A stretch of DNA of 64,000 nt from Coemansia sp. RSA 487 (taxonomy: Eukaryota; Kickxellomycota; Kickxellomycetes; Kickxellales; Kickxellaceae), in NCBI GenBank assembly GCA_027577595.1, contig JANBRJ010000018.1:161111-225110 (forward strand), read 5' to 3'. Below the pieces are notes generated by a model. It searched no databases. It had not been told where the DNA came from and saw only the letters and a list, made by a program, of their open reading frames with translations. Shown here piece by piece: positions 39,759 through 64,000 of this stretch. Numbering within the stretch: the stretch's first letter is position 1; each line of letters starts with the position of its first letter. The position numbers and the translations under genes are program-made.

Positions 39759-42755
<2,997 letters not shown>

Positions 42756-44063: not shown

Positions 44064-44297
44064 GGCAAACAGAAAATGTGGCAATTAGTTTGTCCATTGT
44101 ATTGACATTAACCACATTTCTTCTAAATCAGTTATACTCTCATTCATTTCACGAGGCACTCCTTTCATATACATTCGGGCACTTCTTGTTATAACACAAG
44201 CAACACTCTTTACCACCCCCTCACATTCTTTTTACATTAGAGACAAGCATCGACACTTTTAAGCAATCTTTCTTTCCCTTTCTACTTTCAATACCAA

Positions 44298-45374
44298 ATG
44301 TTCTCCAAGACCGTCTCTCTTCTGGCGCTGGCCGCCTCTGCCCTGGGACACATGGAGCTAATTGCACCGTGCCCACGCTACTCTGACAAATGCGCAACCC
44401 AGCCAGCACTTCCAGCTGGCGAATCCATCGACTACGATCTCAACGCACCCATCGGCAGCAACGGTGCCGTGCTTCAGCCTCTTTGCAAGCACACTACAGC
44501 GTGGCCATCAGTAACCGACACCTGGACTGCCGGCCAGTCGGTCACTATCCAGTTTGCAGCTGGCGGCGCCACGCATCTGGGTGGCGACTGCGAGTTCTCG
44601 ATCTCCTACGACGGGGGTAAAACATTTGTAGTCTTGCATCAAGAGCTTCGCTACTGCTTCTACACGGCCAGTCCCGATAGCGGCGGTGTCGACAGCGTAC
44701 GCTCATACACGTTTGATTTGCCAAGCAATCTTCCCGGAACAGACCATGCCGTTTTCTCCTGGTCATGGGTCAACGCCTCCGGGAACCGCGAGTTTTACAA
44801 TAACTGCGGTGATGTGGCTGTTGTTGGAAGCGCTGGCTCGTACACTGGCAAGTCGATGACCATTGCCAACTACGGTGCCGGGTACCCAGTCATTGCCGAG
44901 TTCCTTGGCAACTACGATACTGGCATCGAGTACTACACCACCAATACCACGGATGTCACTGTCAGTGGTTCTGGCTACACCAGCTCTGGTAGCGGTGGCA
45001 GCAGCGGAAGCAGTTCTTCCGCTGCTCAAGATAGCACTACCGATGCTGCTCAGGCTAGCACTACTGACGCCTCTCAGGCTACTACTACTACTGATGCCGC
45101 TCAGGACGGAACCACCACTGCTGCTGGACTTCCTACTTCGTCTGCTCCTGCGATTTCTGCCCCGAGCAGCGCTGCAGAAACTAGTGCTGCGGGTGGCGGA
45201 ACAGACCTAGGCGAGTGCACATCCGCTAAAAACGGCCAATACCTTTGCTCCAGCGACGGATCTTCTGCTGTATTCAATGTCTGCGACAACGGAACGTGGA
45301 ACCAAGGGTCATGCGACTCGGGAACTGTTTGCAAGCAGAGTGGCACTACTATTTACTGCGCTTGGGCATCGTAG
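44298..45374 (+). CDS. Secreted chitin-type lytic polysaccharide monooxygenase (AA11-like) with CBM19-like tail
   Basis: 358 residues. The signal peptide ends at Gly17, so that His18 becomes the N-terminal His of a copper histidine brace. The second brace His is His93 (ATHLGGDC), and the axial Tyr is Tyr167 in WSWVNASGNREFYNNC, the AA11 signature. A Ser/Thr/Gln-rich linker (TTDAAQ repeats, about 235-300) leads to a C-terminal six-Cys module (CTSAKNGQYLC, FNVCDNGTW, GTVCKQSG) like CBM19 of fungal chitinases. The enzyme would cut crystalline chitin oxidatively outside the cell or in its own wall. AA11 versus a related AA family is a judgement by eye. Confidence 0.83.
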   Translation: MFSKTVSLLALAASALGHMELIAPCPRYSDKCATQPALPAGESIDYDLNAPIGSNGAVLQPLCKHTTAWPSVTDTWTAGQSVTIQFAAGGATHLGGDCEFSISYDGGKTFVVLHQELRYCFYTASPDSGGVDSVRSYTFDLPSNLPGTDHAVFSWSWVNASGNREFYNNCGDVAVVGSAGSYTGKSMTIANYGAGYPVIAEFLGNYDTGIEYYTTNTTDVTVSGSGYTSSGSGGSSGSSSSAAQDSTTDAAQASTTDASQATTTTDAAQDGTTTAAGLPTSSAPAISAPSSAAETSAAGGGTDLGECTSAKNGQYLCSSDGSSAVFNVCDNGTWNQGSCDSGTVCKQSGTTIYCAWAS

Positions 45375-47031
45375 GCTATAGAAGTTTATCTAATCTTATA
45401 GCTTTTATACCCGCTTTCTTTGGTTTCTCAGAACCAATGGAAACGATTTGAATATATTTCTAATACACAATGGCTTTTTTTTTGGAATTTAGGCGATTAA
45501 CGCATATCGTTATGAAAATTAAATTCGATATAACAGCCAAACACAGATCAGCGTAAACCGATGTATGTCTAGTTCGTGGAGCTAGTCCTCCATACATGTT
45601 GTTAGAAAACCGCGCACGACAATAAGCAGGTATTTAAATTTGTAAATATTGGAGACCGAATAAAGGATTCTCAATCATGAAAAGACCATATGCACTAGCC
45701 TGCTTCGACGATCCAAATTTGGAATGCCATATCGTTTGCATCTTCAACGCCTGAAATCCGGCTATTTCGTTTTAAAAAAGGGGGTGCTGCAATTTTGTTC
45801 TCGAATTCTCTTCCAGTGGCGATGTTTCTGAACAGCACTTTGTTTTGATTTCAGTTGTCGTTTGCATATTTCTGTAAGAAATGGTATCATGAGGGGAAAA
45901 CATACTGCAATTGACAAATTACCCTGTTGTCATTTTCGCTTCCACATTGAAAATATGGAGCCAATTATCTTTTCTCTGATGGATTTTGCTTTTCAATAGT
46001 ATACTAACAGTATGAAATAGGGATTGACGCGGAAACCATGGGAGTATTTTTGGAATGCTTTTTAAAAACAGCATAGTATATGACTTTTTCATGGAGCAGC
46101 TGATAACTGTACTGATTTTTTCTGCAAGAGTTTCGTCATTGTTCTGGCTTTGATAGGACCGATCGGTCTTGTTTACAGAAAAAGGACCAGCTGTTCCATG
46201 TATGTTTGCGCACGTCGACATCATACCCTGATACTGTTGGCTGGCCATTTTGTTTTACTTTTTTAAAAGTTGTCATGAGGTCACTTCCCACAAAAGTGTT
46301 TCCAAAGTGACGAAAATATTGCAAAAGTGGGTGGTCTTTTGCAGATCAATACATATTTCCCTGGTTCTGCAGATCTTGTGATGTAATCAATATCGGGGAA
46401 AGCCACCGATCAAAGAAGAACCAAATTGGTGGTGTTCGTCACTGCACAGACGCGCAACGCAAAATTGTAAACAAATATGCACTGAAACCGACTGCCCACA
46501 TACACGTGTGCATGTTTGTAGGTTGATGCATAAAGAAGCGCGATTGGCATTGGGTGCGAACTGCGAACTGCGAACTGCTAGTCAGTATAATATTACAATA
46601 TTTTTTATCCAGTCCCTATTTCCAATTACAAAGGATGGTTCTTTGCACGGATGTGCACAACAGGCAAGGGAATGACGACTTATTTGAGGATCGTCCAAAT
46701 ATCTTCCATCCACTCTGGACAACACAGAGAAAAACTAGTGCAGCCAAGTGCAGGGGCGGCGCTCACAACTACATTGAAACGCACACGAGTAAAGGGCGAA
46801 TTCAAACTACCTCTTCTGGTGGAAATGACAGCGGTTTGTGAGCTCAGCAAACTCGTTAAATACACTGGCCCCGCCAACACAAAAATTCCAGAGACTCTTC
46901 ATCGAAATACACACTCCCCCTTCTTCCTCAATCTGAACACTACCGTTTTGACCCCCTTACCTACAACTCGCTCTCTTCTGATACGAACCCCCTTTTTCCA
47001 AACTTTTTAAACTTTAATTTCCCAATTCAAA
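45375..47031. other. Long spacer between LPMO and CAP-like genes
   Basis: About 1.65 kb without a supported gene. A 7-bp unit (TGCGAAC) repeats three times at about 46555-46577. The ORF 45919-46248 (minus) has no recognisable feature. Confidence 0.45.
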
Positions 47032-47844
47032 ATGTACTTCCGTGTAAGCAAGCTTCTTTTTGCTGCCGCGATCGCCTCGTCGGCGGTGTCGGCTGCGCCT
47101 GTTGATCTGTCTGATGTCACAAGCACTGTTGGTGGTGTTGTTAACGGCGCTGTTGGCGCTGTTGATGGTGTTGTTAACGGCGCTGTTGGCGCTGTTGATG
47201 GTGTTGTTAACGGCGCTGTTGGCACTGTAAACGGTGTTGTCAACGGTGCTGTTGGTACTGTTGGTGGTGTTGTCAACGGCGCTGTTGGCACTGTTAACGG
47301 CGTTGTTGGTGGTGTTGTCAACGACGTAAATGGTATTGTTGGTGGCCTTGTCAATGGCGGTGTTGGCGGTGTTGTCGGCGACGTAGATGGTGTTGTTAGC
47401 GGTGTTGTCGGCGAGGTTGATGGCCTTGTAAATGGCGTTGCTCTGCCTCTCGTTCTTGGTGCACTGAATGAAGTTCGCACGACTGCTGATGCCGCCCTCA
47501 AAGCGGTTCCCCTTCTCGTAAACCAGGTGCTTGAGGACACAGCCCTTAAAACGCTCCAGAACCTTGTTGGCAACGACGGCCAGCTTGTCAGCGGCGCGTT
47601 GGACACAATTACAAAGGAGGTTTCCCAGCTTGATTCCACCATTTCTGGTGTTGTTGCGTTTGCCGGCAAGGGTGTGGCAACCGCTGACGATATTGTCAAG
47701 GGAATTACGTCCCAGGCTTCCAGCGTATTGAGCAGCCCCGTTAACAACATCCTTGGTGTTGCTCAGGCTAACGGTGTTTGGACTCTCGTCGCCGGTACTC
47801 TGAAGGGCGTTTCTGGAACTACCAACGCTCTCTCGAAGGCCTAA
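47032..47844 (+). CDS. Secreted protein with 11-residue VVNGAVG repeats and CAP-like domain
   Basis: 270 residues with a signal peptide ending SAVSAAPVD. Residues about 32-140 are tandem 11-residue units of the type VVNGAVGxVxG encoded by 33-bp DNA repeats; they form a regular Val/Gly/Asn stretch likely to be amphipathic or beta. The C-terminal 120 residues (VLGALNEVR, VNQVLEDTALKTLQNLVGNDGQ) align with the secreted protein at 57469-58011 and weakly with the CAP/SCP fold (helix with ALN..R, L..A...Q, N.GQ). The cell-wall or secreted role is inferred. It is followed by the alpha/beta hydrolase gene; the same pair is mirrored at 55.9-58 kb. Confidence 0.72.
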   Translation: MYFRVSKLLFAAAIASSAVSAAPVDLSDVTSTVGGVVNGAVGAVDGVVNGAVGAVDGVVNGAVGTVNGVVNGAVGTVGGVVNGAVGTVNGVVGGVVNDVNGIVGGLVNGGVGGVVGDVDGVVSGVVGEVDGLVNGVALPLVLGALNEVRTTADAALKAVPLLVNQVLEDTALKTLQNLVGNDGQLVSGALDTITKEVSQLDSTISGVVAFAGKGVATADDIVKGITSQASSVLSSPVNNILGVAQANGVWTLVAGTLKGVSGTTNALSKA

Positions 47845-48350
47845 GTTTTATTTTGTGGATTCGTTATGATTCATTTTATACTATTCCGATCAATTCATTG
47901 TCTATCTTGAATATAGGATATTGGATACTTTATTTGGATGGTGATTATTCTGTGGTGGTTTGTTTTTATATTGAATTTACATTACACGTACTTTGGTAGA
48001 GAAAGCAAGGCGACTGGCTTGCTTTCAGCAGTGGTTCCCCTTTTTTCCAGTCTTGGAAATCCTATTTTGGAGAAGAAGAATTTCTTATTACAAAAATAGA
48101 ACGAGATTAGAGGAAAATGTAACAAGGCCAGGATCGTATCCTCTTTAAAGAAGCGCCCCAGCCTGCCTCTTCTTTTTTTTGTGACTTTACTCTTTGCAAG
48201 CTTCTTGTGCTTTTTTATTCCTCCTTACAAGCTATATAGTAAAGGGAGACAATGGTAATGCCTGCCTCTATGCAATATTTACGAAACCTACCTTTTCGGG
48301 AAATCCGCATCCTTTTTGTCTAATCAAATATTCTTATTAAATACCGAATA
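47845..48350. other. Spacer between CAP-like A and hydrolase A
   Basis: T-rich flank; no gene or clear TATA box supported. Confidence 0.4.
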
Positions 48351-49601
48351 ATGGCTGATGTCGCCGTAGATAACTCCATGTTGCCCGCCGAAGCAACGGA
48401 TAGTCCTATTTGGAAGCACCTACAAAGGAGAGGGAGAGTTGATATAAACGACAGCTACAGCAATGGTGTAGCTCCACTGAACATATACTACGAAATATAT
48501 GGGAGCGGAACCGAGCGCATTGTCTTTGTCAATGGTAAGAACCAGCACGGCTTTCTGGCATAATCGCTGCTGTACCTATTTCAAATGGCCGGAAAACTAA
48601 CAGCAATTTAGTGTCACTTCTTTTTAGGTATGCGTGCCGACCACCAGATGTGGGAATCCAACATCGAGCAGTTTCTCAAGCTCGGAAACTACGAGTGTCT
48701 TGTGTATGACCATCGCAGCACAGGCCATTCCGATCCAGGAAAAGGACTTTTTTCATTTACATCTTCAGGCTTGGCGTCTGACCTGAAAAAGCTAATGAAT
48801 GCCTTAAAATGGAGCAAAGCAAACATAGTCAGCGTTAGTATGGGTGGTATAATTGCGCTGGAGTTTGCTTGCAATAGTTCAGAAATGGTAAAGACGTTGA
48901 CATTGGGTGCTACAACGCCAGGGATCTACATTCCGCCACTGACAAGTATTGTAGACACCTTGCGCATTGTCTTTTCACAAACAAAGAAACAACAACTGAC
49001 AAACATTTGCTTGTCAAGCTACACCCGAGAGCATCTGGAATCTCCTGCACCAGGTGACTCTGGGTGTTCCAATATGTTGGACTACTACTTGGCAACTGCC
49101 AAGAGAAAAGCAAAATACAGGCCGCGTTGGAAAAATTCAACTGCTTTTGGGCAGCTACTAAGCGTCTTTCGCCACAGGGTATCGCCTTTTAGGCTTGTAA
49201 ACCTAGGCACTGAGCTACCAAACAAGCAGGTTCTCATAGTTGTTGGAGCAAAAGACCGCATAATTGACCCAAGGGATTCAGCATATTTAGCTGATTGTAT
49301 TGGACGCCAGAAGGTCATTTTTGAGTCGTTTGATAACGCTGAGCATGCTATTTATATTCAAGAGTCCGAGCGCTTTGTTCGTAGTATCGACTCAATGATT
49401 TCCACATATAACAACCAAAATTTCAACAATCAAAAAAGCCTTCATGACCTAAACAAGCCACAGTATTGTTCTCCAAACAAAAATTCACTAATCAAAATAC
49501 TTGTCCTCTGGGAAACGTCTTCTGCACACCTTGCATTCCGTTTCTCTACCCTATTTCTTTCACTGGGTATATTATTGCAGCTGGCTATTTTGCTCATGTA
49601 A
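48351..49601 (+). CDS. Alpha/beta hydrolase copy A with C-terminal membrane anchor (two exons)
   Basis: Exon 1 48351-48534 and exon 2 48628-49601, intron 93 nt (GTAAGA to TTTTTAG); the unspliced frame stops after nine codons. The product is 385 residues. Nucleophile Ser132 sits in VSVSMGG, acid Asp271 in VVGAKDR, and His301 in NAEHAIY; the lid is Cys/Ser-rich. Unlike copy B it ends with about 60 extra residues finishing in a hydrophobic helix (TLFLSLGILLQLAILLM), suggesting a tail-anchored membrane form. Substrate unknown; ester, epoxide or lipid hydrolysis is possible. From 48377 to 48889 it is almost identical to copy B. Confidence 0.83.
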
Positions 49602-50049
49602 ATATTTAAAAGTAGTGTCACCCACCTCTTTGCTGTCGTCTATAATTTGAGCCTTTTCTTTTTTTTTTTTGCTTCATGAACTAATGCTTGCAAGTGGTTT
49701 TCCCATGGTATGCACAGACAAAATAAAAGCACCAAGAATTGATTTTTGATATGCTTGTTTTCTGCTGGTGGTATGTGTATTTTAGTATTCTTAAATGCAT
49801 GGCGGCTCATTTCTATCTAGTTTTGTTTGCAAGCACACACATTTTTATTTCTTCGCACACACTTTTTTTATTTCTTCGCACACGCCCCACGTGTGTGTGC
49901 TCCACACATCACACATCATGTAAAGCCTGCTGGATACATACGCTGGTGAGAAAATGCCTAGATGTTTATTGACAACACAAAGCTGGCATTTTTAGCATGG
50001 CTCTCATTTACAAAATACCTTGGCAGCTCTCATCTAGGAAAAGGTTGCG
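49602..50049. other. Spacer upstream of the Fet3-like gene
   Basis: AT-rich with a repeated TTTATTTCTTCGCACACAC-type unit near 49845-49885. No gene supported. Confidence 0.4.
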
Positions 50050-50056
50050 TATAAAA
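50050..50056 (+). promoter_or_regulatory. TATA box of the multicopper oxidase gene
   Basis: TATAAAA 89 bp before the ATG at 50139. Confidence 0.55.
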
Positions 50057-50138
50057 GTCTAGCTTCCCTAATTAACTAATGAGCACTAGGTTTATGTTTT
50101 CACTAGACAAATTGTAGCAATACTTTACTTTATTCAAG

Positions 50139-51764
50139 ATGCTTTTCAACTTTCTTGCTTTAGCGGTATCAGTGCTTCCGTTCTGCTTCACCGCTCGCGT
50201 AGATGTACACTGGGAAGTGGTTTCTTTTATGCTCAATCGTGACGGAAACACCACCAGAACAACCTACGGCGTCAATGGAAAGTCGCCGATTCCGCCAGTT
50301 TATATTAACAGCGGAGACACTCTTGCTCTGCACGTACAGAACTCGCTGAATGAGCCAACCGGGATACACTTCCATGGGATGTTCCAAGAGAACACCCCCT
50401 ATTACGATGGCTCAGATATGGTAACCCAATGTGGCATCCCTCCTGGAGCAAACTTTACCTATTACATTACTCCACAGCAAGAGGGAACCTACTGGATTCA
50501 CAGCCATTACCATCACCAGAATTCCGACGGACTTCGCACGCCGTTTATCATCCGCGACAGCAGCCCCATTGCGGAGTACGACGATGACATTTTATTTTCT
50601 CTCGAAGATTGGTACCCGGTAGAGTTTTCCGAAAGAGTAAATGACATCTTGCGCCCAGGTGTCCCTTTCCCACCTTCTCCCGAGTATCCATACGGTCTCA
50701 TTAACGGATATAATGGCAATGATACCACGCCAATCCAGTTCTCGCCTGGGAAAAAGTACCGTATACGTGTCGTGAATATGGGCACCACCGAGTGGTTCAA
50801 GTTCAGCCTGCCTGGCCATAAGATGCAGATAATTGAGGTTGAGGGCGAGCGCACTGTGCCATACAATGCCAGCGGGGTCGATGTCGGTCCAGGACAGCGC
50901 TACTCTATGCTTGTTGAAGCCAAGGATACCGACGACTTTAACTATATTTATAATGCGACGCTTTACGCAGACTTTATAGCAGGCGCGCCAGGACAGAACC
51001 CACGCTACTACTTTGGTTCCGTTGAATACAAGAAAGGCGCACCTGTTAAGGTTCCAGCAGTGACTGATGATTCGGATATTGATGGCACAAAAGACATAAA
51101 CCTCAGCCCGTATGACGGAGAGCCGCTTTTGGAGCCTGTCACAAAGAATTTGCTTTTCAATTTTACAACCAAAATTCTGTCCGATAACATTACACATGCG
51201 ATGCTGGGCAACCACCCGTACTCGCAAGTGTCTGTGCCAACCATATACACAGCACTCACAATGGGCAGTCTTGCGACTAACCCAGATGTTTACGGTGCAC
51301 AGACACAAGCGCAGGTTCTCGATTACAACGACATTGTTGAGATTGAGTTGCGTGCCACAGCACCACTTGACCACACGTTCCACCTCCACGGCCATAAATT
51401 CCAGATCGTGGAGTATGGCCCATCGCCCGATGCGCCTGCATCAAAAACAAAGAACATTTCCGTGCGCCGTGCCAAAGGCTCGCCAATTAAACGCGACACG
51501 CTCACAATTCGCGGGTGGGAGTATATAAAGGTTCGCTTTAGAGCCAACAACCCGGGTGTCTGGATGTTCCATTGCCATATGGACGTGCACTTTTATATGG
51601 GGCTGGCTGTTACATTTGTTGAGGCCCCGCTTGAATTGCAGAAGAAGATAACTGTGCCTGACGCTCTTAACCAGCTGTGTTATAGCCAGGGAATAAAGAC
51701 GTACGGTAACGGTGCTGGCAACGATGGTCTTAACATGACAGGTCTGCCATTTATGCCGACGTGA
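50139..51764 (+). CDS. Fet3-type multicopper oxidase, apparently without membrane anchor
   Basis: 541 residues with a signal peptide (to about Ala19). The four copper motifs are complete: HFHG (77-80), HSHYHH (121-126), HLHGHKF (415-421) and HCHMDVHFYMGL (478-489). This gives the T1 Cys479 and trinuclear site. Overall order and TFHLHGHKFQIVEYG match the Fet3/laccase-like ferroxidase group, which oxidises Fe(II) for import by Ftr1 or oxidises phenols. The usual C-terminal transmembrane helix of Fet3 is missing; the protein ends GLPFMPT, so it may be secreted. No Ftr1 gene is nearby. Ferroxidase versus laccase activity cannot be decided by eye. Confidence 0.88.
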   Translation: MLFNFLALAVSVLPFCFTARVDVHWEVVSFMLNRDGNTTRTTYGVNGKSPIPPVYINSGDTLALHVQNSLNEPTGIHFHGMFQENTPYYDGSDMVTQCGIPPGANFTYYITPQQEGTYWIHSHYHHQNSDGLRTPFIIRDSSPIAEYDDDILFSLEDWYPVEFSERVNDILRPGVPFPPSPEYPYGLINGYNGNDTTPIQFSPGKKYRIRVVNMGTTEWFKFSLPGHKMQIIEVEGERTVPYNASGVDVGPGQRYSMLVEAKDTDDFNYIYNATLYADFIAGAPGQNPRYYFGSVEYKKGAPVKVPAVTDDSDIDGTKDINLSPYDGEPLLEPVTKNLLFNFTTKILSDNITHAMLGNHPYSQVSVPTIYTALTMGSLATNPDVYGAQTQAQVLDYNDIVEIELRATAPLDHTFHLHGHKFQIVEYGPSPDAPASKTKNISVRRAKGSPIKRDTLTIRGWEYIKVRFRANNPGVWMFHCHMDVHFYMGLAVTFVEAPLELQKKITVPDALNQLCYSQGIKTYGNGAGNDGLNMTGLPFMPT

Positions 51765-51765
51765 A

Positions 51766-51782
51766 TATATATATATATATAT
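51766..51782. repeat. TA dinucleotide repeat after the oxidase stop codon
   Basis: A short run of alternating A and T directly downstream of the TGA stop, followed by a T tract. Confidence 0.8.
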
Positions 51783-51919
51783 TTTTTAGCTAGTTTCAGA
51801 TATTTTTTTTACCCTTTGAACACTAATTTATTCTTTCGAATCTAGTTTATTTACAAAGCAAAATGCTGTCCTGTGTTTATCAATTCAAAAAGTTGTGCAG
51901 ATATTCCGTCGTAAGAAAG

Positions 51920-53614
51920 TCAAACCTCGACGTCTTCAACAGTTATCTGGCGAACGCCTGGATGTGGTTTTTTCGACTGCTTGAGAAGCATGTTGATTTG
52001 GTCTTTAAACATAGGCGCAACCACAACTGCCATCTCAAGGCCGGGTAATCGCTGGATCAGAAAGTATATAATGTTGCTTATAAAGTGGGTTGAATAGTTT
52101 GTAAACCTACCCGAAACTTTAAGTATTTTGACATTGAAATTTATAGGACATTCAATCAGTTCTGTCCACTGCGGCGAATCAATATGACCAACATCGTTTA
52201 TAAACCTCTCAAAGCATACTTCTCCGATTTCTAAAACATGAAGTGATGGCGTTTGGCGTAATATGTCCATCAGGATTGTAAACTCGATTTTGCTTTCCAA
52301 AGCCAAATCGTTTAAATATGTCCATTTAATGCTATCTTGATTAATGGTGAACGGGAAAGTACACCGGGTTGACAGAGCTGCATCTTTGCGAATTTTGATT
52401 TCGCCAAACAGATTATTTGTAACTTTGTAAAACGATTCCTCATCTGATGCAAAGATGGAATCGATATAAATATATACAAAGCCCACATCTTGTAGCCTCA
52501 GGTGTTGCAACTGCTGAATCAGTGAGAAAGACCCTGAAATGCTGATATCGTTTATGTTAGGAAAACCATCTTGTGAGTAAAAGACGGGACATTCGGGTGA
52601 AGCAAATTCAAGCCGCAGCTTCTTTAATCTAGGCATATTCACTTTGACCACCATTTTACTATTGTGATGATCGCTCGATACTAAACGTAGTTCGTTGGGT
52701 TGTGGATTGGGTGGGGAGTCAGGTAATGATCGTGGGGAGTTAAAAAATATTTCAAAACTCTGAAGATTTGGAAAATCATAAACACCAGCTTCCTGTTGGC
52801 TTTCTAATGCGCTCCACGAAAAAGATTGTGGCACATTGACCAAAAATATGCTTTCCAGCAAATCGTAGTTGAGTTTAAAACTGTCAGACAACCCTGTGCC
52901 ATGCATAAAAAGGCCAATGCGTTTAAATTTTTCTGAAAATCGGAGTCCAGAGGGGTCAATCGGCACTTGGTTAAATAAAACTTGTAGCTGCGATGAATAC
53001 AAATCCACAAGCTTTCCAGCAAAAAAAATTGTTACTGGGTTAGTGTGGTGTGATAGGTGTGTCCTTAGATGTAACTTAGTCAAGCTAACCAGGCTTTGGG
53101 AAATAAGGTATGCAGAATGCGCCATTCTGTCTTGTTGAACATGCTCTTCGATATCTGGCTCGTCAACCTCATCCAACACAGAGTAAAGATTTATGTTTAA
53201 AAAGCGTATATAAGCCCATTTGGCATGCGCTGTGTCAAGTATTTCCATAGATTTACCGAAAAACGTTAAAAGGTGGACTGGGGCATCTAAATACAACTCA
53301 AGCTTTCGCACGCTAGATGTATAGCCACAAAGTGTGTGGAAATCAACATTTGTCATCCAAACAGGCTCGTCGGGGAATTCATCATCTATAGAGCGGATCT
53401 CGCTATCACTGGCTCCGGTTATCACTTCTTCAGGTGCATCATAGCATTCAATGAATGCCCAGTAATGAATCCATGGCTTAGAAAGTACACGCAGTTTCCT
53501 TGAAATTAGAGACAGCTGGATTGTTTGCATCCAGCTCTTTGTGCATTGCGCCTGCACACCTACTGCATGCTTAAATATAAGTGTGGTAATCTCGCAAGGT
53601 AGCTTATCCAGCAT
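51920..53614 (-). CDS. F-box-like / LRR protein, copy 1
   Basis: 564 residues from ATG 53614 (MLDKLPCEITTLIF). The N-terminal LPCEITTLIFKHAV segment with following helices resembles a fungal F-box. The rest is a repetitive leucine-rich solenoid with irregular LRR-like units. About half of the positions in the first 60 residues match the next gene (for example WMQTIQL and ECYD versus WKQTIQL and ECYD). F-box proteins choose substrates for SCF ubiquitin ligases. The target is unknown. Large families of this kind are common in zygomycete genomes. Confidence 0.7.
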   Translation of the reverse strand: MLDKLPCEITTLIFKHAVGVQAQCTKSWMQTIQLSLISRKLRVLSKPWIHYWAFIECYDAPEEVITGASDSEIRSIDDEFPDEPVWMTNVDFHTLCGYTSSVRKLELYLDAPVHLLTFFGKSMEILDTAHAKWAYIRFLNINLYSVLDEVDEPDIEEHVQQDRMAHSAYLISQSLVSLTKLHLRTHLSHHTNPVTIFFAGKLVDLYSSQLQVLFNQVPIDPSGLRFSEKFKRIGLFMHGTGLSDSFKLNYDLLESIFLVNVPQSFSWSALESQQEAGVYDFPNLQSFEIFFNSPRSLPDSPPNPQPNELRLVSSDHHNSKMVVKVNMPRLKKLRLEFASPECPVFYSQDGFPNINDISISGSFSLIQQLQHLRLQDVGFVYIYIDSIFASDEESFYKVTNNLFGEIKIRKDAALSTRCTFPFTINQDSIKWTYLNDLALESKIEFTILMDILRQTPSLHVLEIGEVCFERFINDVGHIDSPQWTELIECPINFNVKILKVSGRFTNYSTHFISNIIYFLIQRLPGLEMAVVVAPMFKDQINMLLKQSKKPHPGVRQITVEDVEV

Positions 53615-53906
53615 ACTTTGTGTATAAACACACAATAATTCACTTTTTTACATAGAAATAACAAGCTACAAGAATTAAAACAACAGTAAACGGAAAAATG
53701 AAGAAATATGACAAGGAGCTGCTTCTGCGGGTTTCCTTCTTTTTCCGCTGGAAATTATTGAAACGACTTTCCTTTCTGTCTCTCTTTCTACGAGCTTTCT
53801 TTTTGTAGACAAGTACAAAGCGTTTCAGCGTGTGGAGCTATTGAAGGTGAGCCGCAGCAACCCGCCTTTCTAGTCCGATTTTCATAGCTGCTCGTGTTGG
53901 TCGAAC

Positions 53907-55592
53907 TTATACGCCAGGCGCCGTATCTATTAATTGCAAATTCGGACAAATGTCTTTGTTTTCCACCAAAATATTTGATATTTTGCACGTGTAGTACTCA
54001 TTGACATACAATTTCTGCAGAGATGGAAGTCTAGTTAGTATGCGCTTGAAAAAGTAGCATACAAATGGCATGCTATAATCTGGGAAATAACAGCAGATCT
54101 CTAATCGATGCGGCTCTGTACTGACAAGGTCAGCAGCACTAGCACTGTCTGGATTTTGCAGATACTCATCATGAAGCTTTAATAAGCCAATTTGATAAAC
54201 TTCAACGCTGCAAATATTAGGCAGACACGATACTAGCTTCATCAGGGTAAAGTAGTCTATAGCATGAGTAACACCAAGGTCAGTGATGTTTGTCCAACGT
54301 ATCATGGACGTGTCAAGGTCAGAAGGCAGTCGCATAATATAAAACGTTGTCGTTGTCTTTACTTTGATATCTCCAAAAAGATAGTTTGTCAATGCATAGA
54401 AATCTTTCCTTTTGCACTTTGAATTGCAATCCAAAAGGATAAACAGCTTGTTCAGATATTGGATGTCGCGTGCTAGTAAGTGGAATAAAGCTTCGAATGA
54501 TGCTCCAATATGAATATTGCGCATGACTGAGCACATGGATTTAGTGCATATTTCCGGTAGTCCGTTTGGAGGGTTTTCAAGCCGCAACGTGTCAATAACA
54601 GGGAACATGAAACTCACGTTGTCTTGGAATTGCACATCATTTCTTTGTCGGATATGAAGATCGTCAATAATTCCCATCATCTCTGAAAATATTAGTGTAA
54701 ACGACTTTAGACGACTAAAGCATATTCGTTCAGTATTTTTGCCTTGGTCGATAAAATGATCCCATGGCAGTCTATGCGGTGCATTATATAAGTACAGACT
54801 TTCCAAGCTTGCTGAATAAACAAGCGGGAGAAACTTTGCAGTACTGGACTCCATATTAACACGAAGTGATGTAAGCTTATTCAGAAGCACTGGGCTATCT
54901 GATTCTAAGAAAACATTAGAGTATATAGCAATCAGCTGGTCTGAGTACTCACATGCAAGTCTGCTGGCGAATGCCTTAATTGCTTGTGTTTCTCCGAAAC
55001 TATTGTTTGTCAAAATCGTCAATCTTTTGATGTTTTTAAACCAAGCCCCAAATTTAGTAGACATAACACCAAGCAAACTTATGTCATTATTATCATATGG
55101 AAAATCTTCGTTTTCTAAATCATTAAGCTTCAATTTCAATGCACGTAGAGATATCCAGGGATAACTGTCGACTTGCAGGTGGTTCAACAGACTAGCGAGG
55201 AAATGCGGTATTTTCATCTCAACTTCCATGTGCACATCTAAAACTCTGGCCTTTGGAAAATGCCCATGAAGTGTCAAAAATGTCACATTTGTGGCCCATA
55301 TAATTCTTTGCATGCTATGTTCGTTCTGATCGTCGCTATTTAAAATACCAACTGTTGGTTCTACACTATTCAGGCTGCTAATATCATCTATATCGCTAGC
55401 TGTACCACACTCGTCATAGCACTCTACATATACCCAATTGTGTACCCATTGCATTGAAATATTGCGCCATCGACGACAGACTGCTAAAAGTTGTATGGTC
55501 TGCTTCCACTCTGTTAGATTTTCCGCCTGCATTCTAACCGCATGGCTTATAATATCATCAAGTATGTCGAACGGAAGTGTGTTTATATGCAT
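53907..55592 (-). CDS. F-box-like / LRR protein, copy 2
   Basis: 561 residues from ATG 55592 (MHINTLPFDILDD). N-terminal LPFDILDDIISHAV is F-box-like, followed by the same WKQTIQLL and ECYDE blocks and a leucine-rich body. It is a tandem paralogue of the gene at 51920-53614, much diverged. AT-rich codons differ from the conserved genes in the window. Role in SCF ubiquitination is inferred from the N-terminal motif only. Confidence 0.7.
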   Translation of the reverse strand: MHINTLPFDILDDIISHAVRMQAENLTEWKQTIQLLAVCRRWRNISMQWVHNWVYVECYDECGTASDIDDISSLNSVEPTVGILNSDDQNEHSMQRIIWATNVTFLTLHGHFPKARVLDVHMEVEMKIPHFLASLLNHLQVDSYPWISLRALKLKLNDLENEDFPYDNNDISLLGVMSTKFGAWFKNIKRLTILTNNSFGETQAIKAFASRLACEYSDQLIAIYSNVFLESDSPVLLNKLTSLRVNMESSTAKFLPLVYSASLESLYLYNAPHRLPWDHFIDQGKNTERICFSRLKSFTLIFSEMMGIIDDLHIRQRNDVQFQDNVSFMFPVIDTLRLENPPNGLPEICTKSMCSVMRNIHIGASFEALFHLLARDIQYLNKLFILLDCNSKCKRKDFYALTNYLFGDIKVKTTTTFYIMRLPSDLDTSMIRWTNITDLGVTHAIDYFTLMKLVSCLPNICSVEVYQIGLLKLHDEYLQNPDSASAADLVSTEPHRLEICCYFPDYSMPFVCYFFKRILTRLPSLQKLYVNEYYTCKISNILVENKDICPNLQLIDTAPGV

Positions 55593-55920
55593 CGTAATTG
55601 GTAAAGTGAGCCAGATTAATTAGCAAACAAAGATATGTTAGAGCCTTTACTTTATTAACGCTAAAAATGTATATATAGTATGAATTTGATGAAGTAATTA
55701 CGAAAAGAAAAGCAGGAATTCTTAGCAGAGAATGGATATTTCTTTGCGTGTTGCATTTTCTTTTTGGCTTACTAGATATTGTACAAAGAGAGCAGCGCAT
55801 TGAAAGTCTCATGCCAACTGGTGGAATGCAAAACAATAGATAAGTTAGCGGAAATTAATAGGTAACAAATAGTAATTATGCTCCTGTAGAAGCAAAGAAG
55901 CATGTTAAAATGCAGTTTAT
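55593..55920. other. Spacer between F-box-like copy 2 and hydrolase copy B
   Basis: About 330 bp between the start of the F-box-like gene and the end of hydrolase copy B. No gene supported. Confidence 0.4.
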
Positions 55921-56991
55921 TTACTTTGATTGGGTGTTAAATTTGGAAATCATTGAGTCAATGCTATGTACAAATCTAACACATTCTTGAGAATGTATAG
56001 CATGCGCAGCATCGTCATATACCTCACTAATGACATGTTGGCGTCCAATACAGTTAGCTAAATATGCCGAGTTTTCTGGATTAATTACACGATCCCTCAA
56101 CCCAACAATCACGAGAATCTGCTTATCAGGCAGCGCTTTCCCCAAATTTTCCAGCTGTGAGGGCAAAATTGTATGGCGAAAGACGCTTAGTAGCTGTCCA
56201 ATAACCGTGAATTTGTTCATACGTGATTTGTATTTTTCCCTTCGCTTGGCCACAGCTGAGTAATAGTCCAGCATGTTGTTGCATCCAGAGCCACTCGGTG
56301 CTGGCGATAACAAATGCTCGCGCGTGTACTTGGACAAGCAAATGTTTTCAAATTCTTGTTGCTTATTCCATGAGAATATAACGCGCGCAGTGTCAATAAC
56401 GCTTGCAAATGGAGGAATATTGATCTTGGCGGATGTAGCACCCAGCGTTAATGTTTTCACCATTTCTGAACTATTGCAAGCAAACTCCAGCGCAATCATA
56501 CCACCCATACTAACGCTGACTATGTTTGCTTTGCTCCATTTTAAGGCATTCATTAGCTTTTTCAGGTCAGACGCCAAGCCTGAAGATGTAAATGAAAAAA
56601 GTCCTTTTCCTGGATCGGAATGGCCTGTGCTGCGATGGTCATACACAAGACACTCGTAGTTTCCGAGCTTGAGAAACTGCTCGATGTTGGATTCCCACAT
56701 CTGGTGGTCGGCACGCATACCTAAAAAGAAGTGACACTAAATTGCTGTTAGTTTTCCGGCCATTTGAAATAGGTACAGCAGCGATTATGCCAGAAAGCCG
56801 TGCTGGTTCTTACCATTGACAAAGACAATGCGCTCGGTTCCGCTCCCATATATTTCGTAGTATATGTTCAGTGGAGCTACACCATTGCTGTAGCTGTCGT
56901 TTATATCAACTCTCCCTCTCCTTTGTAGGTGCTTCCAAATAGGACTATCCGTTGCTTCGGCGGGCAACATGATGCTATCTATAGCAATCAT
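55921..56991 (-). CDS. Alpha/beta hydrolase copy B, without membrane tail (two exons)
   Basis: Exon 1 56814-56991, exon 2 55921-56720, intron of 93 nt identical to that of copy A by eye. The product is 325 residues and ends IDSMISKFNTQSK, about 60 residues shorter than copy A, with no C-terminal transmembrane helix. The Ser130, Asp (VVGLRDR) and His (DAAHAI) triad is intact. The 5' part (tract 56459-56971) is almost identical to copy A, while the 3' part differs at many residues. It is oriented opposite to copy A. Confidence 0.85.
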
Positions 56992-57468
56992 GTGAGGCTA
57001 CTGTTAAAGCAAATAAGTGGGCAAATAAAATAAAGTGACTATAAAAGGCAAAAGATAAAATTGGTTTTCAAGCGAGAAAGAAGGAATACAAGCAATCTGA
57101 ATCCTGTGCAAAAAGCACGTTTACCTTTTTCATATACTTACAAAGAAATTGTGTTTATAGCTTGGACAGCAATCTACAAAGGAGCGACTAACTAAAAACA
57201 AATGTCAAATGGATACTAACTAAATCCACAATCATTTAATTAAAGAGTTAATGCCAATAATTGCAAACATTATAACATGGTACATGTGCACTTTTAATTC
57301 CCATCACTTCAAGCCCATAGTATTCACATAAATCTCGTTAATTTGGCTTAAACTACAAGCAGCTTGAATATCCGATATGTTGAATTCAAATACTAAAATA
57401 AAATATCTGTCGCTACACATTTGAAAAGAAATATAAATATGGGGGCGCAAAATGCATCCCAGGTGAAC
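56992..57468. other. Spacer between CAP-like B and hydrolase B
   Basis: About 480 bp, AT-rich, promoter side of hydrolase B. No gene supported. Confidence 0.4.
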
Positions 57469-58011
57469 TTAGGATGGGATTAGCACATCTCCAATATCAT
57501 CTGGGTTAACCACCTTGGAGTCGGAGACATCACTGTAATGTCCACCGAGGAAGAATGACCAATACGTATCGACTTGCGAAAAGCCAATGGCTGAGAAGTT
57601 AGGTAAAACCAGGTTAATTGAGGGCTGTGACTCAATATTGTCAACAGGGCTACCATATTTCCCGCCAAGCCCATTAATAGCTGTAATATTCGGAGCAAGT
57701 TTGAATATTTTCTGGCTAATTGTGGGCGGAATAGTACTTGTAATTTGGCCATTGTTAGACATTGTCTGGGCCATTTCAAGGGTTGCATCCACAAGCACCT
57801 TGTTGATGGTAAAGGGAGCCAAGTTGGTGTTATGGTTGCTATTATAGCTGGAGCGAAGTGTATTCAGTGCATCGAGGACAGAATCCACGTCAACAGCATC
57901 CGCCGTGTTGTCTACGCTGAAGGAAACGTCCAATGAATCGACTGGGGCAGCCGAAGCTGCGGTCGCAAATAGTACGGTAGCGAAAAGAATATTGCGTGCG
58001 CTGACAAACAT
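57469..58011 (-). CDS. Small secreted CAP-like protein, copy B
   Basis: 180 residues from ATG 58011. The signal peptide ends SAAPVDSLDV, nearly the same as the SAAPVDLSDV of the protein at 47032. The mature part (VLDALNTLRSSYNS, TINKVLVDATLEMAQTMSNNGQ) resembles the first half of a CAP/SCP domain and the C-terminal domain of copy A, but the 11-residue repeats are missing. The C-terminal third (WSFFLGGHYSD) keeps the Trp position where the CAP fold has its final strand. The catalytic-type His residues of CAP proteins are not evident. Secreted; function unknown. Confidence 0.68.
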   Translation of the reverse strand: MFVSARNILFATVLFATAASAAPVDSLDVSFSVDNTADAVDVDSVLDALNTLRSSYNSNHNTNLAPFTINKVLVDATLEMAQTMSNNGQITSTIPPTISQKIFKLAPNITAINGLGGKYGSPVDNIESQPSINLVLPNFSAIGFSQVDTYWSFFLGGHYSDVSDSKVVNPDDIGDVLIPS

Positions 58012-60670
58012 GTTTAAAAGTATAAAATCGAAATGAACAGAAAAGTTAATGAATAGTGGTAAATGAGCTGACAATTTATGCTTTGATGGAAAACTCGTTC
58101 CAACTTCAGTCGGCAGGCATTAGCCCATTTAAACTATTTACCGACGCAATCAACTGCTGTATTTTTCGGAATGTTTGAGTTGCTTTTTATCGTTGTGCAT
58201 ATTATACAGAAAATGTAAACATGGCGCTTATAATGCTTGGCGGTGGTGTTATAATATTTTTCGTTGTATTTTGTGGGTGACATGCATTTGGTATTTTCTT
58301 AAATAATTGTCATTCCTTTGCCTACAATACATGTCTGTGCATATGAGTCTTTGTAAACGAAAGTGGGGCACGGTTGGAGATATTACGCTTTGCATGTGTT
58401 TCTTTTCCGTGTTTTATGCTAATCGTCCTTCTCAATGTGTCATCCTGCCAAAATGTTCATGTGTAGCTGTGCAGTTAGGGCTTAGTGTGGATTTGTTTAT
58501 GGAGAATTGCGTTAACCAATGGCCATCGCCAGTTCGGTGCTTCTTTAAGTGAGCAAGTTTTGTCGATTGGCAAGTTACTCTAAAGCTGATTACATCATAC
58601 GATTTTCGGGATCGGAATACAAGGAACCGATTTACAGGAGACCATTTCCCTTTTAAAGGCTTGGAAGCCTTGGAATACGTCTCCTTGGGAGACCACAAAG
58701 CTTGAAAAGAAGCGAAAGACAAACCAAAATAGCAAAGTATGATGTCACTGCGTATGCATGCCAAGATGCTCCTAAAGGTTCAATATCAATCGTTAGCCTT
58801 TGTGCATTTTGAAATATTGCATGGCTAAGGAAGCGCTGGAAAACAAGTATTGCTCTTTTCCTGAGTAGTTGAGCGATGATTGAAAGTGTTTCTTTGAATT
58901 GCGGGGAAAAATGAGTTCCTTTATAGGCACAGTTGCGGCAGTTCTTGTCAGATGCGCCAATTTATAAACAAAAAGAAGTACTAGTTTGATTGAACGTTCT
59001 TTGATCAAAACAGCTTAAAAGGCATTTATAACACGTAAACGGGTTTAAAGCTAGGCTTCTTAGGTTTATAACGCTCCTATATATTATGTTAGTTTGTATA
59101 TCCAATATATTGTAGAAAGGAACATATCAGCAGATAGCTCTTATATAGATTTTGGCCGAATTAATAAACATATTTAGGCTGAGCTTGATACTGAAAAGTA
59201 CAAATGGTGCTTGTATCAGGATAGCGGAGTGGAATAAAAGGAATAATGGCGTGAGTTACGAGTTAAATTACAATAGAAGAATCTATAGAAATCTTCTGTC
59301 TGCAGAAACCAATGCATTTAAAGAAACTGCCGACTGCACCAGCTGCTACTTTTTTTCAGCATGCAAGAGCTTGTTCTTTCTCTAACGTGCTTTGCAAAAA
59401 TGTAAATACAGTATCAATAGCTTTTGATAGTAGCTTTTATAATCCCTTTCTTGCGTTAGTGACATGTTTTTGAGATATTCATAAATATGTTGTTGTTCTT
59501 TTGTCAGAAATACGTGCCTGTGCAAAAAAAGAATCCTTTATAAATAATAAAAAGGAACCCAATAAGAAATTGTGAGATTTTAAATGGTGTTTCTTTTCAT
59601 ACAATATGCTAATCGCACTCTTCCACGTATAAACGTGCCAAGATACATGTGTGCAATCGAGCTGTTGATTCCACTGCTGAATCGTCTTTAATACTATTTC
59701 TTTTAGAAGATCACCAATCTGGTGCTCCTCTAATCTATAGCTTCCCCAAAGTCGATTACATTACCAGGAAACTATGTGCTGATTTACAAGGTACCATCAG
59801 GTTTTGTGCTAGTTTCCATTCTTTTTGAAACATTTATGTCTGATAGACCTCAAAATTAATGCAAGCCAAAGCAAAGGAGTCCAACCTTTTAAAGCACTCC
59901 CGAACATTTGAATGATCCTTTTCAGCAGTAATCTCACCATTGTTTTGGTAATCCATACCCTGGTCTATACCTTTTCAAACTAGCTGATACCCCCACATGT
60001 GATTCTTGGCAGATGATGTAGGTGTTAGACTGAACTTTAAATAAGCGCCTGGTCAGCAATATTACATTATGGTAAGGAGTTCTTCGCGTAAAGGTAACTG
60101 GACTAAAAGTAATTATAGTCGTTTTTGAGTAATTTTCGAACCTAGGCGGCGTAGGCAGACTTCACATAGTTGTAAATCATGCATTCGTTCTGCAACACTG
60201 CAAAGTATAAAAACTAGCCAATTGATGCACATTATTTATACAACATCTGTAGAATACAAGCCACAAAATCTGACGCCTGTTGGGGGATGTAGATTTATGC
60301 TGCTCTGTTTTCGGTTGTAGTGTCGAATGTAAAGGAAAAGAAATACAACATGGGGTTTATAGAAAGCTACATGAAGTGAAAATAAGAAAAATAGGTCGAG
60401 ATATCAAAAAAATATCAACATTGTTATCCGAGGGACTCTTGTGCTTAAGGGCTCGCAATACTGGATAGCCAGCCGTTCACACCTGTATGCTGCAGCACTC
60501 ATAACGCTAATGTTTATGGCTGTGTTCTTGTACTGGTCAAAGAAATTACAGGTTGGGAGCCATCTGTTCATCGAAAATATGATATATAAATTTGTATAAT
60601 TTTTCTCTCTAATCTAAAATTTGTCCACCAAACACGGTACAGGATATTTTATTTATACAAGCCTCCCTTG
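58012..60670. other. Long AT-rich spacer without supported genes
   Basis: About 2.65 kb. The ORFs (58432-58764 minus, 58793-59008 minus, 59152-59385 plus, 60280-60468 plus) show no recognisable domain, signal or codon bias. Confidence 0.5.
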
Positions 60671-63600
60671 CTAGTAAATAAAAAGCCACTGTCCAAAGTC
60701 GTTTGCTTTGACCAGCTCTGCAAAATGACCGTTATTTTCAAGCAGCTCTGCAGGTGGGCCTATTTCTGCTACTCTTCCGTTGTCCATAACAATAATTCGA
60801 TCACTATTCATGATGGTTTCAAGACGATGAGCAATAGTAAGTACTGTGCAGTCTTTGAATTCAGAGCAAATAAGTCTTTGCATGCGCTGGCCTGTTTCCA
60901 AGTCAACGTTTGCCGTAGCTTCATCCAAAATAACAAGCTTATGATTGCGCATCAATAGCCTGCAAAGACCAAACAACTGCTGTTATCCATCACTGAAACT
61001 TTGGCCCGCAAATCTGTTAAGACCATGTGGTTGTACCTCCCAAGTAGCAGTTCTATCAATTATAGGCATTTCTATAAACAAATATAGGAACAAGCGCATA
61101 GACCAGTTTCCCCCTTTCCACTCCTCATTCTAATCTCTAATTTCCTCAAGTGTGTCCTCATCAATGTAGTTATCATCACCATCGTTGTCGTCATCAGATC
61201 CACAAGCATATATTGGCTGGACATACTCAAAAATCCCACATTTTATAATCGCTGATCACATATCTTCCACGCTATTTTTGACAAGTGGATCGAGGTTCTG
61301 TCTAAATGTCCCTTCAAACATTGTTGGTTCTTGCGGAATGATGCCTAGCTTTGGTCGCAGGTTGCCTATATTGAGCGAGAATATATCTTGACCATCGATT
61401 ACAATAGACCCTTTGCATGTGCTGCTGCCAACCAAGCGGAAAAGAGCCCGGGTAAGCGACATTTTGCCGGCACCTGTTCTACCAACAATGCCAATTTTTA
61501 CGCCTGCATTTATGGACAAATTGACATTATCTAATACATGCTCTAGATTTTTACGATATTTCATGCTGAAATTACGGAATCCAATCACACCAGCAGATGG
61601 CCATTGCTCATCTGGCTTTGTTGCATTTTCAACAAACATCTCTTCTCTATCCATATTGGTAAACTGCCTAAACACTTCAGCCCTGTTCTTGAAGTTCAAA
61701 GCATCAGATTTGAAACCTAAAATACTACTGACACTGTCTGCCAACATGTCCACCAAATTTGCATATGCATCAAGCTCCACTGAAGATATCCTGTGCTGAA
61801 ATATCTGGTTATGAATTAAAGTAAATATTTTGCACAGCGATAAAACAATGCGATATGACAGGATGTAGATAGTTGTCAAGTAGCCATCAAATAAGCGCTG
61901 TGGCAATTCAACACGGAGATTTTTGTCCTTTTCGTTCATGTATTTTGCTGTAAAGTGTTTCTCCACATCAAATATGCGAATAAGTCTCTTTCCGTCTGCA
62001 ATAATATTGTCTACTTGTTCTTGGTCAATCAACACTTGGGTTTCTATCTTTTCCAATGACAAAGCAACAGGTGCTCCAACTGAATCTCTCGCAGTGCTTG
62101 CCCACGCAAACATTGGAACAAATATCAGCAACTGTGGTGCATTTGTTCCAACTCTGTATACTGACAATATGGCTTTCATAATCTCAGTAATTTTGACTCA
62201 AAAACTTTAGTATTTCCTCAGGCATTGCTCTAGTGCCATTATTATATGCTGAGGATATTTCCTGTCTTGTAGTGCTGTCAAATAATACCAATGGTGCATG
62301 GATTGGCCCAGTAATAAATATGCTTTTTATACGAGATTTGAGGTACTTTTCTGAAATTTCTTCACTGACGTAGTAATCAATTTCATAAATTATATAATCA
62401 CAGCCTTTTTAAGAATTTCAATAAGTATATACCTTTGAATAGCTTTGCTAGATAAGCTGACAGTACTCTGTTGGTCTCCAAGCGTATCCAGTTTATAGCC
62501 ATCCAAAATGAATTGTGAAATTGGTCCAATCAGTGCTAAAAATAAAATTATAGCCAGAGAAGGCCCACCACACATCTTTAAAACATATTTTGCATGATCC
62601 CAGTTACTCCAGTTCTTTCTAGCTATTTCTGGAATGGCTTCGCTATCTTCAATTTCATTATCTGTACCATCTTTTGGATCTAATTCCTGGTCAGCATTAT
62701 TCTCATTATCGAACTCAGAACAAGCATTGTCACTATCTGATAAATCATCTAAATTATCTGTCAATGGTTGATATTTCTGCCGTGTATTCGAGATACAGCC
62801 ACTTTTCCACTGTCACCAAGCCTCAATACCTTGTCAAAGTATGGCAATAGGCTCTGCATATTAACAGACACTATGCGGATTTTGCCAGCAAGCAATCCAG
62901 AATCCATGATAACATGATCAAGAAGGTGTCGCTTTCCATGTGCATCAACAGCAGATAGTGGATCATCCAATATGTATATATCAGCTCGTGAATAAACGGC
63001 TCTTGCAAGTGCAAGCCGTGCCTTTTGTCCACCAGAGATGTTGATGCCACGCTCACCAATCGATGTCATATCTCTGTTGGTCCAGTTGTTAATGTCTTCA
63101 GTTAGAGCACACGCATAAATTACCTTGTTGTAATAATCTTCATCATACTCACGGCCAAACAGTATATTCTCGCGCAGTGTGCCACTCATAGTCCAAGGCG
63201 TTTGTTCTACCAGAGCCATCGAGCCAACAACAGCACCTGTTCCGCCAGTCATTTCAACCTCGCCACAGATAGACAACAATAGTGATGACTTTCCTGATCC
63301 TATCTTGCCAACTACTGCAACAAGCTCACCTTCTTCTGCTGAAAACGAAACGCCAGTTAAAACATAATATTTCTTATCCCAGGTGAATTTACCATTGTCT
63401 ACACAAATTGACGACTTTGAATAATCGGTACAGGCTTCATACTCATAATTTTGCGCCCTTGATGTATCTATTGGATAATGAGGTAAAGAATTAATCTAGT
63501 CACCCTTAAGGGCCTTTTCCACAAAGTAATTATTTTCTATAAAGTCACGCAAGGACTTAAGCTGAATTATAGCTCTTTCAACATCCCATTGCATATGCTC

Positions 63601-64000
63601 GATAAGACCATTCATCCAAAACATATCCGCTGTTGAAATTGGGCTTGATGAGCTTGCGCTGTGTTGAATGTATAGGTAGAACATCAGAAATGATGATACA
63701 TGCTGGATAGCTGTATAAAATATTTTGTAAACAAAACAAGAAATCCTGGCAATTGGTGCATACCACGGAGTTCTTTCCTTATGATCAAATCTTTCCCAGT
63801 ATTTTTGAATCTTTGGGTCAACATACATCTTTTCTCAACCAAACATCCTAATCGACTTTATGTTGTGGTAAATCTTATCTACACTGCCATCATATCCATA
63901 GCAGTAAGGAGCACACAAGTACTCTGTGTGACGAATCGAGCATGGACCTGGGATGGATAACAAGGAGTATTCAGATGATGTTTTATCTTTTATTTCCTTT
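60671..64000 (-). pseudogene. ABCC/MRP-type ABC transporter, decayed, 5' end beyond the window
   Basis: On the minus strand, fragments in collinear order cover TMD1 end (NIKSIRMFG-stop-EK), NBD1 (Walker A GKIGSGKSS, ISGGQKARLALARAVYSRADIYILDDPLSA), an acidic linker, TMD2 and NBD2. Lesions: TGA at 63835-63837 where a Trp is expected, TAG at 63496-63498, frameshift near 62761-62764, TAA at 62390-62392, TGA at 61256-61258 at another conserved Trp position, TAA at 60983-60985 in the NBD2 signature region where Gln is expected, and Walker A GKMS instead of GKSS. The last fragment keeps LVILDEATANVD. A functional product is not possible. Confidence 0.88.

What the first reader, a model, noticed from the sequence alone, without database searches (positions are those of the whole stretch)
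47032..58011. Mirror-image duplication: CAP-like + hydrolase pairs flank a Fet3-type oxidase and two F-box-like genes
Genes run CAP-like (+), hydrolase (+), oxidase (+), F-box (-), F-box (-), hydrolase (-), CAP-like (-). The outer two-gene unit is present once on each strand, with shared signal-peptide ends (SAAPVD) and shared hydrolase sequence. This arrangement is unlikely by chance. It suggests an inverted duplication that captured an iron/copper oxidase and F-box genes, possibly a co-regulated secreted cluster. Co-regulation is inference.
Basis: partly seen in the sequence, partly recalled or inferred. Interest (0 to 1): 0.75.

Follow-up and report, generated by a model that had tools for sequence, protein, structure and literature searches.

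The report
Inverted fungal gene pair, recently gene-converted
In this Coemansia-like fungus an old back-to-front duplicate of a secreted-protein gene plus a hydrolase gene flanks an oxidase gene and two F-box-like genes, and half of one hydrolase gene looks recently overwritten with its mirror copy; this is a clear but ordinary kind of genome change.

Summary
The arrangement is real: CAP-like(+), hydrolase(+), multicopper oxidase(+), F-box-like(-), F-box-like(-), hydrolase(-), CAP-like(-), in a Coemansia-like genome. The mirror symmetry is uneven. The CAP-like pair is only 30% identical in protein. The hydrolases are 512 of 513 nt identical over their 5' half, intron included, then drop abruptly to about 70%. 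Synonymous divergence is 0 in the 5' part and about 1.35 in the 3' part. A tree of the 3' part (moderate support) puts the duplication before the split from other Coemansia. Best reading: an old inverted duplication followed by recent gene conversion of the 5' half, probably right copy into left. The oxidase and F-box genes were probably not captured by it: a tail-to-tail oxidase/F-box pair occurs at two other loci (contigs 1 and 59) without CAP or hydrolase genes nearby. Contig 59 also holds the closest copies, outside the window, of the CAP-like gene and the neighbouring LPMO-like gene, which suggests a scrambled older segmental duplication. The only FTR1 gene found is beside another oxidase (contig 89). 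Promoter comparison gave no sign of co-regulation beyond one weak 27-column match. CAP and F-box labels are below Pfam cut-offs.

The parts
47032..47844 (+). CAP-like left: predicted secreted protein (270 aa), 33-nt tandem repeat in the middle, CAP-like C-terminal part
48351..49601 (+). alpha/beta hydrolase left (385 aa, intron 48535-48627), with an extra hydrophobic C-terminal tail (by eye) that the right copy lacks
48377..48889 (+). gene-conversion tract, left side: 512 of 513 nt identical to the right copy, including the whole intron
50139..51764 (+). multicopper oxidase (541 aa), closest PDB sequence Fet3p, no C-terminal membrane segment seen by eye
51920..53614 (-). F-box-like protein 1 (564 aa), tail-to-tail with the oxidase, 155 nt between stop codons
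53907..55592 (-). F-box-like protein 2 (561 aa), diverged neighbour relative of F-box-like 1 (24-25% identity)
55921..56991 (-). alpha/beta hydrolase right (325 aa, intron 56813-56721)
56459..56971 (-). gene-conversion tract, right side (probable donor)
57469..58011 (-). CAP-like right: predicted secreted protein (180 aa), no tandem repeat reported
44298..45374 (+). LPMO-like secreted protein (named by eye) next to CAP-like left; its closest own-genome copy lies beside the contig-59 CAP-like gene

Best explanation
The mirror image is an old inverted duplication of a CAP-like + hydrolase pair around a multicopper-oxidase/F-box pair. Much later, recombinational repair between the two inverted hydrolase genes copied about 0.5 kb (5' coding region, intron and the first part of exon 2 with the presumed nucleophile serine), most likely from the right gene into the left, leaving diverged 3' halves. 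Shown: the sharp identity step, the identical intron and the contrast in synonymous divergence. Inferred: the direction of copying, that the repair was non-crossover, and that CAP-like gene and hydrolase were duplicated together.
For: Identity is 512 of 513 nt over 48377-48889, then about 70%. Longest identical run 474 nt against at most 81 in 20,000 random placements of about 160 mismatches; synonymous differences 0 at 86 sites in the 5' part and 76 at 122 sites (dS about 1.35) in the 3' part; intron 93 of 93 identical. The 3'-part tree puts the left copy outside right + P0001 + P0002 (82/85) while the 5'-part tree joins left and right (91/94). Direction: identity to C. erecta P0002 is 0.77-0.78 in the 5' part; in the next 76 residues it is 0.79 for the right copy and 0.63 for the left. 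Another record (P0006, Coemansia sp. RSA 986) has the left gene's 5' part joined to this oxidase.
Against: No reads and no second full assembly of the locus were available, so an assembly error is not excluded. Tree support is moderate (8 sequences; neither fork reaches the tool's star level) and P0002 covers only part of the 3' half; over all 94 of its aligned 3' columns the figures are 0.69 (right) and 0.59 (left), a smaller fit to the tract value. The CAP-like pair is so diverged that its joint duplication with the hydrolase rests on order and orientation. The permutation treats all sites as equally free to change.
Confidence: 0.82

Rival explanations
1. Assembly artefact: the assembly pasted one copy's 5' half into the other.
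For: The assembly is fragmented (184 contigs) and the arms are near-identical over 0.5 kb.
Against: One mismatch remains inside the tract (48851). The left 5' part next to the oxidase also occurs in a protein recorded for RSA 986 on a contig of another length (156,078 against 225,110 bases), though that may be the same or a sibling strain. The window's only N run is far away (42313-42322).
Confidence: 0.07
2. Recent duplication of the whole unit with fast evolution of the 3' half, no gene conversion.
For: The left copy has an added hydrophobic tail, so its 3' end has changed.
Against: Synonymous sites are near saturation only in the 3' part, while synonymous sites and intron of the 5' part are unchanged; selection on protein does not do that. 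Left and right 3' parts are about equally far from four outgroup sequences.
Confidence: 0.02
3. Functional cluster: oxidase, F-box, hydrolase and CAP-like genes stay together because they act or are regulated together.
For: The oxidase/F-box pair recurs tail-to-tail at three loci, which are the three own-genome members of one oxidase clade (100/99); hydrolase-oxidase adjacency is indicated in RSA 2049; the CAP-like upstream regions share one short match.
Against: Recurrence can come from co-duplication of neighbours. Five of six upstream comparisons, among them the hydrolase pair and the F-box pair, show no signal at the 5% level. F-box proteins would act inside the cell, CAP-like and oxidase products outside (inference).
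Confidence: 0.15
4. The near-identical inverted arms recombine by crossover, flipping the roughly 7.6-kb centre and swapping the 3' halves of the two hydrolases between promoters.
For: About 0.5 kb of 99.8% identity in inverted orientation with diverged 3' halves inside.
Against: The two other records that show a junction (P0006, P0007) have hydrolase 5' sequence leading into the oxidase, the configuration seen here. No flipped form was seen, and this test had almost no power.
Confidence: 0.05

Closest known systems
Interlocus gene conversion between inverted paralogues, for example the C. elegans hsp16 modules in the review PMC3966223 (passages seen)
   Same: Inverted neighbouring duplicates kept alike by conversion; the review says that two other early C. 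elegans studies reported tracts reaching into introns.
   Different: Here three whole genes (about 7.6 kb) lie between the tracts, and only the 5' half of one gene is homogenised.
Fet3/Ftr1 iron-uptake pair of fungi
   Same: The window oxidase is closest in PDB to yeast Fet3p (1zpu, E 8.9e-72) and keeps the copper-ligand motifs.
   Different: No C-terminal membrane segment seen; the only FTR1 hit is divergent to another oxidase, on contig 89, that has one.
F-box/LRR substrate adaptors of SCF ligases
   Same: A low-confidence model has N-terminal helices then alternating strands and helices; PDB fold matches 1 and 3 are the F-box/LRR proteins MAX2 (E 2.2e-4) and TIR1 (E 5.1e-3).
   Different: F-box score below Pfam cut-off or absent; fold match 2 is NLRC4, an LRR protein without an F-box, and TM-scores are about 0.3.

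Membership tests
Interlocus gene conversion tract | Sharply bounded stretch of near-identity between paralogues that are strongly diverged beside it | tested here: met
   512/513 against about 70%; longest run 474 against a permutation maximum of 81
Interlocus gene conversion tract | Silent sites and introns homogenised too | tested here: met
   0 differences at 86 synonymous sites, intron 93/93
Interlocus gene conversion tract | Trees from inside and outside the tract disagree | tested here: met
   91/94 against 82/85, 8 sequences, moderate support
Alpha/beta hydrolase (PF00561) | Score over the Pfam cut-off | tested here: met
   71.2 against 25.8 bits for the left copy; the right copy was not scanned
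CAP superfamily (PF00188) | Score over the Pfam cut-off | tested here: not met
   No CAP hit for either window protein; contig-59 relative 17.6 against 21.1 bits
CAP superfamily (PF00188) | CAP fold | tested here: inconclusive
   Model pLDDT 53, no significant fold match
Fet3 ferroxidase | Copper-ligand motifs of the multicopper oxidases | tested here: met
   HFHG, HSH, HLHGH and HCHMDVH present (motifs recalled)
Fet3 ferroxidase | C-terminal membrane anchor and FTR1 partner gene | tested here: not met
   No hydrophobic C-terminus by eye; the only FTR1 hit is on contig 89
Fet3 ferroxidase | Acidic iron-site residue (E185 of yeast Fet3p, recalled) | tested here: inconclusive
   Asp at that column here and in the FTR1-linked contig-89 oxidase
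F-box protein | F-box over the Pfam cut-off | tested here: not met
   14.4 against 24.3 bits for F-box-like 2, no hit for F-box-like 1
F-box protein | F-box followed by LRR-type fold | tested here: inconclusive
   MAX2 and TIR1 among the top three fold matches, but model pLDDT 52.6 and residues 1-115 under 50

The most novel reading that the evidence does not exclude
The two inverted, almost identical hydrolase 5' halves may act as a recombination switch: crossover between them would flip the oxidase/F-box centre and exchange the diverged 3' halves (one with a hydrophobic tail, one without) between the two promoters, producing alternative hydrolases in a population.
Probability: 0.05. Interest if true: 0.65.

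Novelty: new member of a known kind. Interest (0 to 1): 0.3.

Why it matters
It is a clean natural case of partial gene conversion between inverted paralogues, here in an early-diverging fungus. It also points to a recurring tail-to-tail pairing of one oxidase clade with one group of F-box-like genes, which can be tested for function. It warns that average identity between paralogues can mislead the dating of a duplication.

Tried and rejected
Capture of the centre by the duplication: not needed, because the oxidase/F-box pair exists elsewhere.

Shared promoter signal: five of six pairs of upstream regions were no better than shuffles at the 5% level (300 shuffles each; the closest, oxidase against left hydrolase, 30 of 300); the sixth, the CAP-like pair, scored 32 with 1 of 300 as high; it is a 27-column match 343 and 286 nt before the start codons.

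CAP fold by structure: low-confidence model, no CAP structure among the 50 rows shown by either fold search. A profile comparison with six of the genome's seven Pfam CAP hits gave 12% probability and is discarded, because one row (L004) was read in a wrong frame and L002 was missing.

A database search with four F-box-like proteins returned nothing; as not even a copy of a query came back, nothing is concluded. The search with CAP-like right found one protein, identical over 161 residues, source not shown.

A fourth oxidase/F-box neighbourhood (contig 59, 85-91 kb) has an F-box-like gene of a different group and a divergent arrangement. The tree of 11 F-box-like proteins did not resolve the four genes linked to the oxidase clade; it only set five others apart (100/100), with two long branches, so their kinship rests on search scores. 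The oxidase tree used 10 of the 11 own-genome hits (the broken contig-59 copy left out) plus P0007.

The chance estimate for oxidase/F-box proximity (expected 0.22 of 11 within 5 kb, P of three or more 0.001; observed 4 of 11, against 35 F-box-like places typed) treats copies as independent, which duplicates are not.

The run test on three oxidase pairs gave 412, 9158 and 2534 of 10,000 permutations at or over the observed run, so no clear conversion there; three alignable F-box pairs gave none.

Full report
What is there. The window is the end of contig 18 (225,110 bases) of a 17.8-Mb genome in 184 contigs. The top seven of ten database hits of the left hydrolase are Coemansia proteins, and the oxidase matches a Coemansia sp. 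RSA 986 protein at 532 of 533 residues, so this is that species or a very close one.

The mirror image is uneven. At DNA level only the hydrolase genes form a long inverted repeat (48367-49418 and 55930-56981, 84%). That average hides a step: 48377-48889 is 512 of 513 identical to the right copy, including the complete 93-nt intron, and from 48890 identity falls to about 70%. The 5' part (139 codons) has no difference at 86 synonymous sites and one amino-acid change; the 3' part (179 codons) has 76 differences at 122 synonymous sites (dS about 1.35) and 110 of 179 identical residues. The longest identical run, 474 nt, compares with a maximum of 81 nt in 20,000 random placements of about 160 mismatches. 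The 5' edge lies within 26 nt of the left start codon, where the two genes stop being alignable. The two CAP-like proteins are only 30% identical over about 126 aa; the left one carries a 33-nt tandem repeat and none was reported in the right one.

Age and direction. With five Coemansia relatives and the contig-24 paralogue, the 3' part places the left copy outside a group of the right copy, P0001 (RSA 1939) and P0002 (C. erecta), support 82/85; the 5' part joins left and right, 91/94. Over the 3' part left and right are about equally distant from four outgroup sequences (0.44-0.46 and 0.43-0.47), so faster evolution of the left copy is not a good explanation. The duplication therefore looks older than these species splits and the 5' identity recent. 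Identity to P0002 is 0.77-0.78 in the 5' part; in the next 76 residues it is 0.79 for the right copy and 0.63 for the left. For P0001 the figures are 0.65, 0.63 and 0.53. Over all alignable 3' columns they are 0.69 and 0.59 (P0002, whose record ends early) and 0.61 and 0.50 (P0001). This favours the right copy as donor, without proving it.

The centre is not a captured cargo. The oxidase has 10 other hits in the genome. The three own-genome members of its clade (support 100/99, tree of 10 of the 11 hits plus P0007), on contigs 18, 1 and 59, each have a convergent F-box-like neighbour. Those neighbours, with the window's second F-box-like gene, are each other's top hits by a wide margin in the two searches made, although the F-box tree did not resolve them. 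The stop-codon gaps are 155, 129 and 1805 nt (contigs 18, 1, 59). The other neighbours differ: a catalase gene stands beside the contig-59 pair, and no hydrolase or CAP-like relative was found in the 20 kb held around either pair. P0007 (RSA 2049) is a database protein that starts as this hydrolase and continues as this oxidase (75% in both parts); I read it, and P0006, as mispredicted fusions of neighbouring genes, which would place hydrolase and oxidase side by side in a second species.

A scrambled older duplicate. In own-genome searches the best copy outside the window is on contig 59 (0.6% of the genome) for the CAP-like gene, the oxidase and the LPMO-like gene, and the second best for F-box-like 1 and 2 (best: contig 1); for the hydrolase the best is on contig 24. 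A HAD-type hydrolase at 1.5 kb also has its only other hit on contig 59, but I chose that query after seeing the contig-59 gene. On contig 59 the CAP-like and LPMO-like genes are neighbours, as in the window, in the opposite order. 49.5 of 105 kb of contig 59 was held, chosen around hits, so this is a lead and not a synteny map.

Conversion may not be unique here. The LPMO-like pair on contigs 18 and 59 is 88.8% identical over 707 nt but carries a 175-nt identical run (44568-44742; 0 of 10,000 permutations reach it), and the MFS-like pair at 11.6 and 15.1 kb has a 73-nt run (0 of 10,000). Uneven selection can also give such runs, and the three oxidase pairs gave no clear signal (412, 9158 and 2534 of 10,000).

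Function. The hydrolases keep Ser in SVSMGG and a C-terminal His and Asp that fit an alpha/beta hydrolase triad (by eye); the left one has an added hydrophobic tail. The oxidase has the copper-ligand motifs and is closest to Fet3p in PDB, but the single FTR1 hit is divergent to another oxidase on contig 89 with a C-terminal hydrophobic segment, so high-affinity iron uptake is more likely served there (inference). The CAP and F-box names are plausible and unproven.

Literature. Gene conversion between inverted paralogues is known; PMC3966223 was seen in passages only. Searches for Coemansia with multicopper oxidase (0 papers) and for multicopper oxidase, F-box, convergent, gene cluster and FET3 (10 papers, listing and abstract starts seen) showed no report of this pairing; the other paper searches were seen as listings only. 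One open library was searched, so this is no proof of novelty.

Noticed in passing
44282-44988: LPMO-like gene and its contig-59 copy (L026:7561-8267) share a 175-nt identical run (44568-44742) inside 88.8% overall identity: a second possible gene-conversion tract, between different contigs.
   Followed up: partly
11653-13158 and 15164-16672: Two neighbouring transporter-like genes (MFS by eye), 78% identical in DNA, with a 73-nt identical run that no permutation of 10,000 reached.
   Followed up: no
L039 (contig 59: 59563-63786): Two further oxidase genes in tandem, the second interrupted by stop codons.
   Followed up: no
1528-2223: HAD-type hydrolase whose only other own-genome hit is on contig 59 (39%), part of the contig 18/59 resemblance.
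   Followed up: partly
47123-47424: 33-nt tandem repeat coding for a Val/Gly/Asn-rich stretch in CAP-like left; none reported in CAP-like right.
   Followed up: no
46662-46688 and 58298-58323: Short near-identical match (27 columns) upstream of the two CAP-like genes, 343 and 286 nt before the start codons, possibly a shared promoter element.
   Followed up: partly
60671-63834: ABC transporter pieces in several frames on the - strand at the end of the contig; introns and a decayed gene were not told apart.
   Followed up: no
42313-42322: Ten N bases (probable scaffold gap) inside what looks by eye like an alanyl-tRNA synthetase gene.
   Followed up: no
48351-51764: Database proteins P0006 and P0007 (labelled ferroxidase fet3) begin with hydrolase sequence: probable gene-model fusions in public annotation.
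   Followed up: partly
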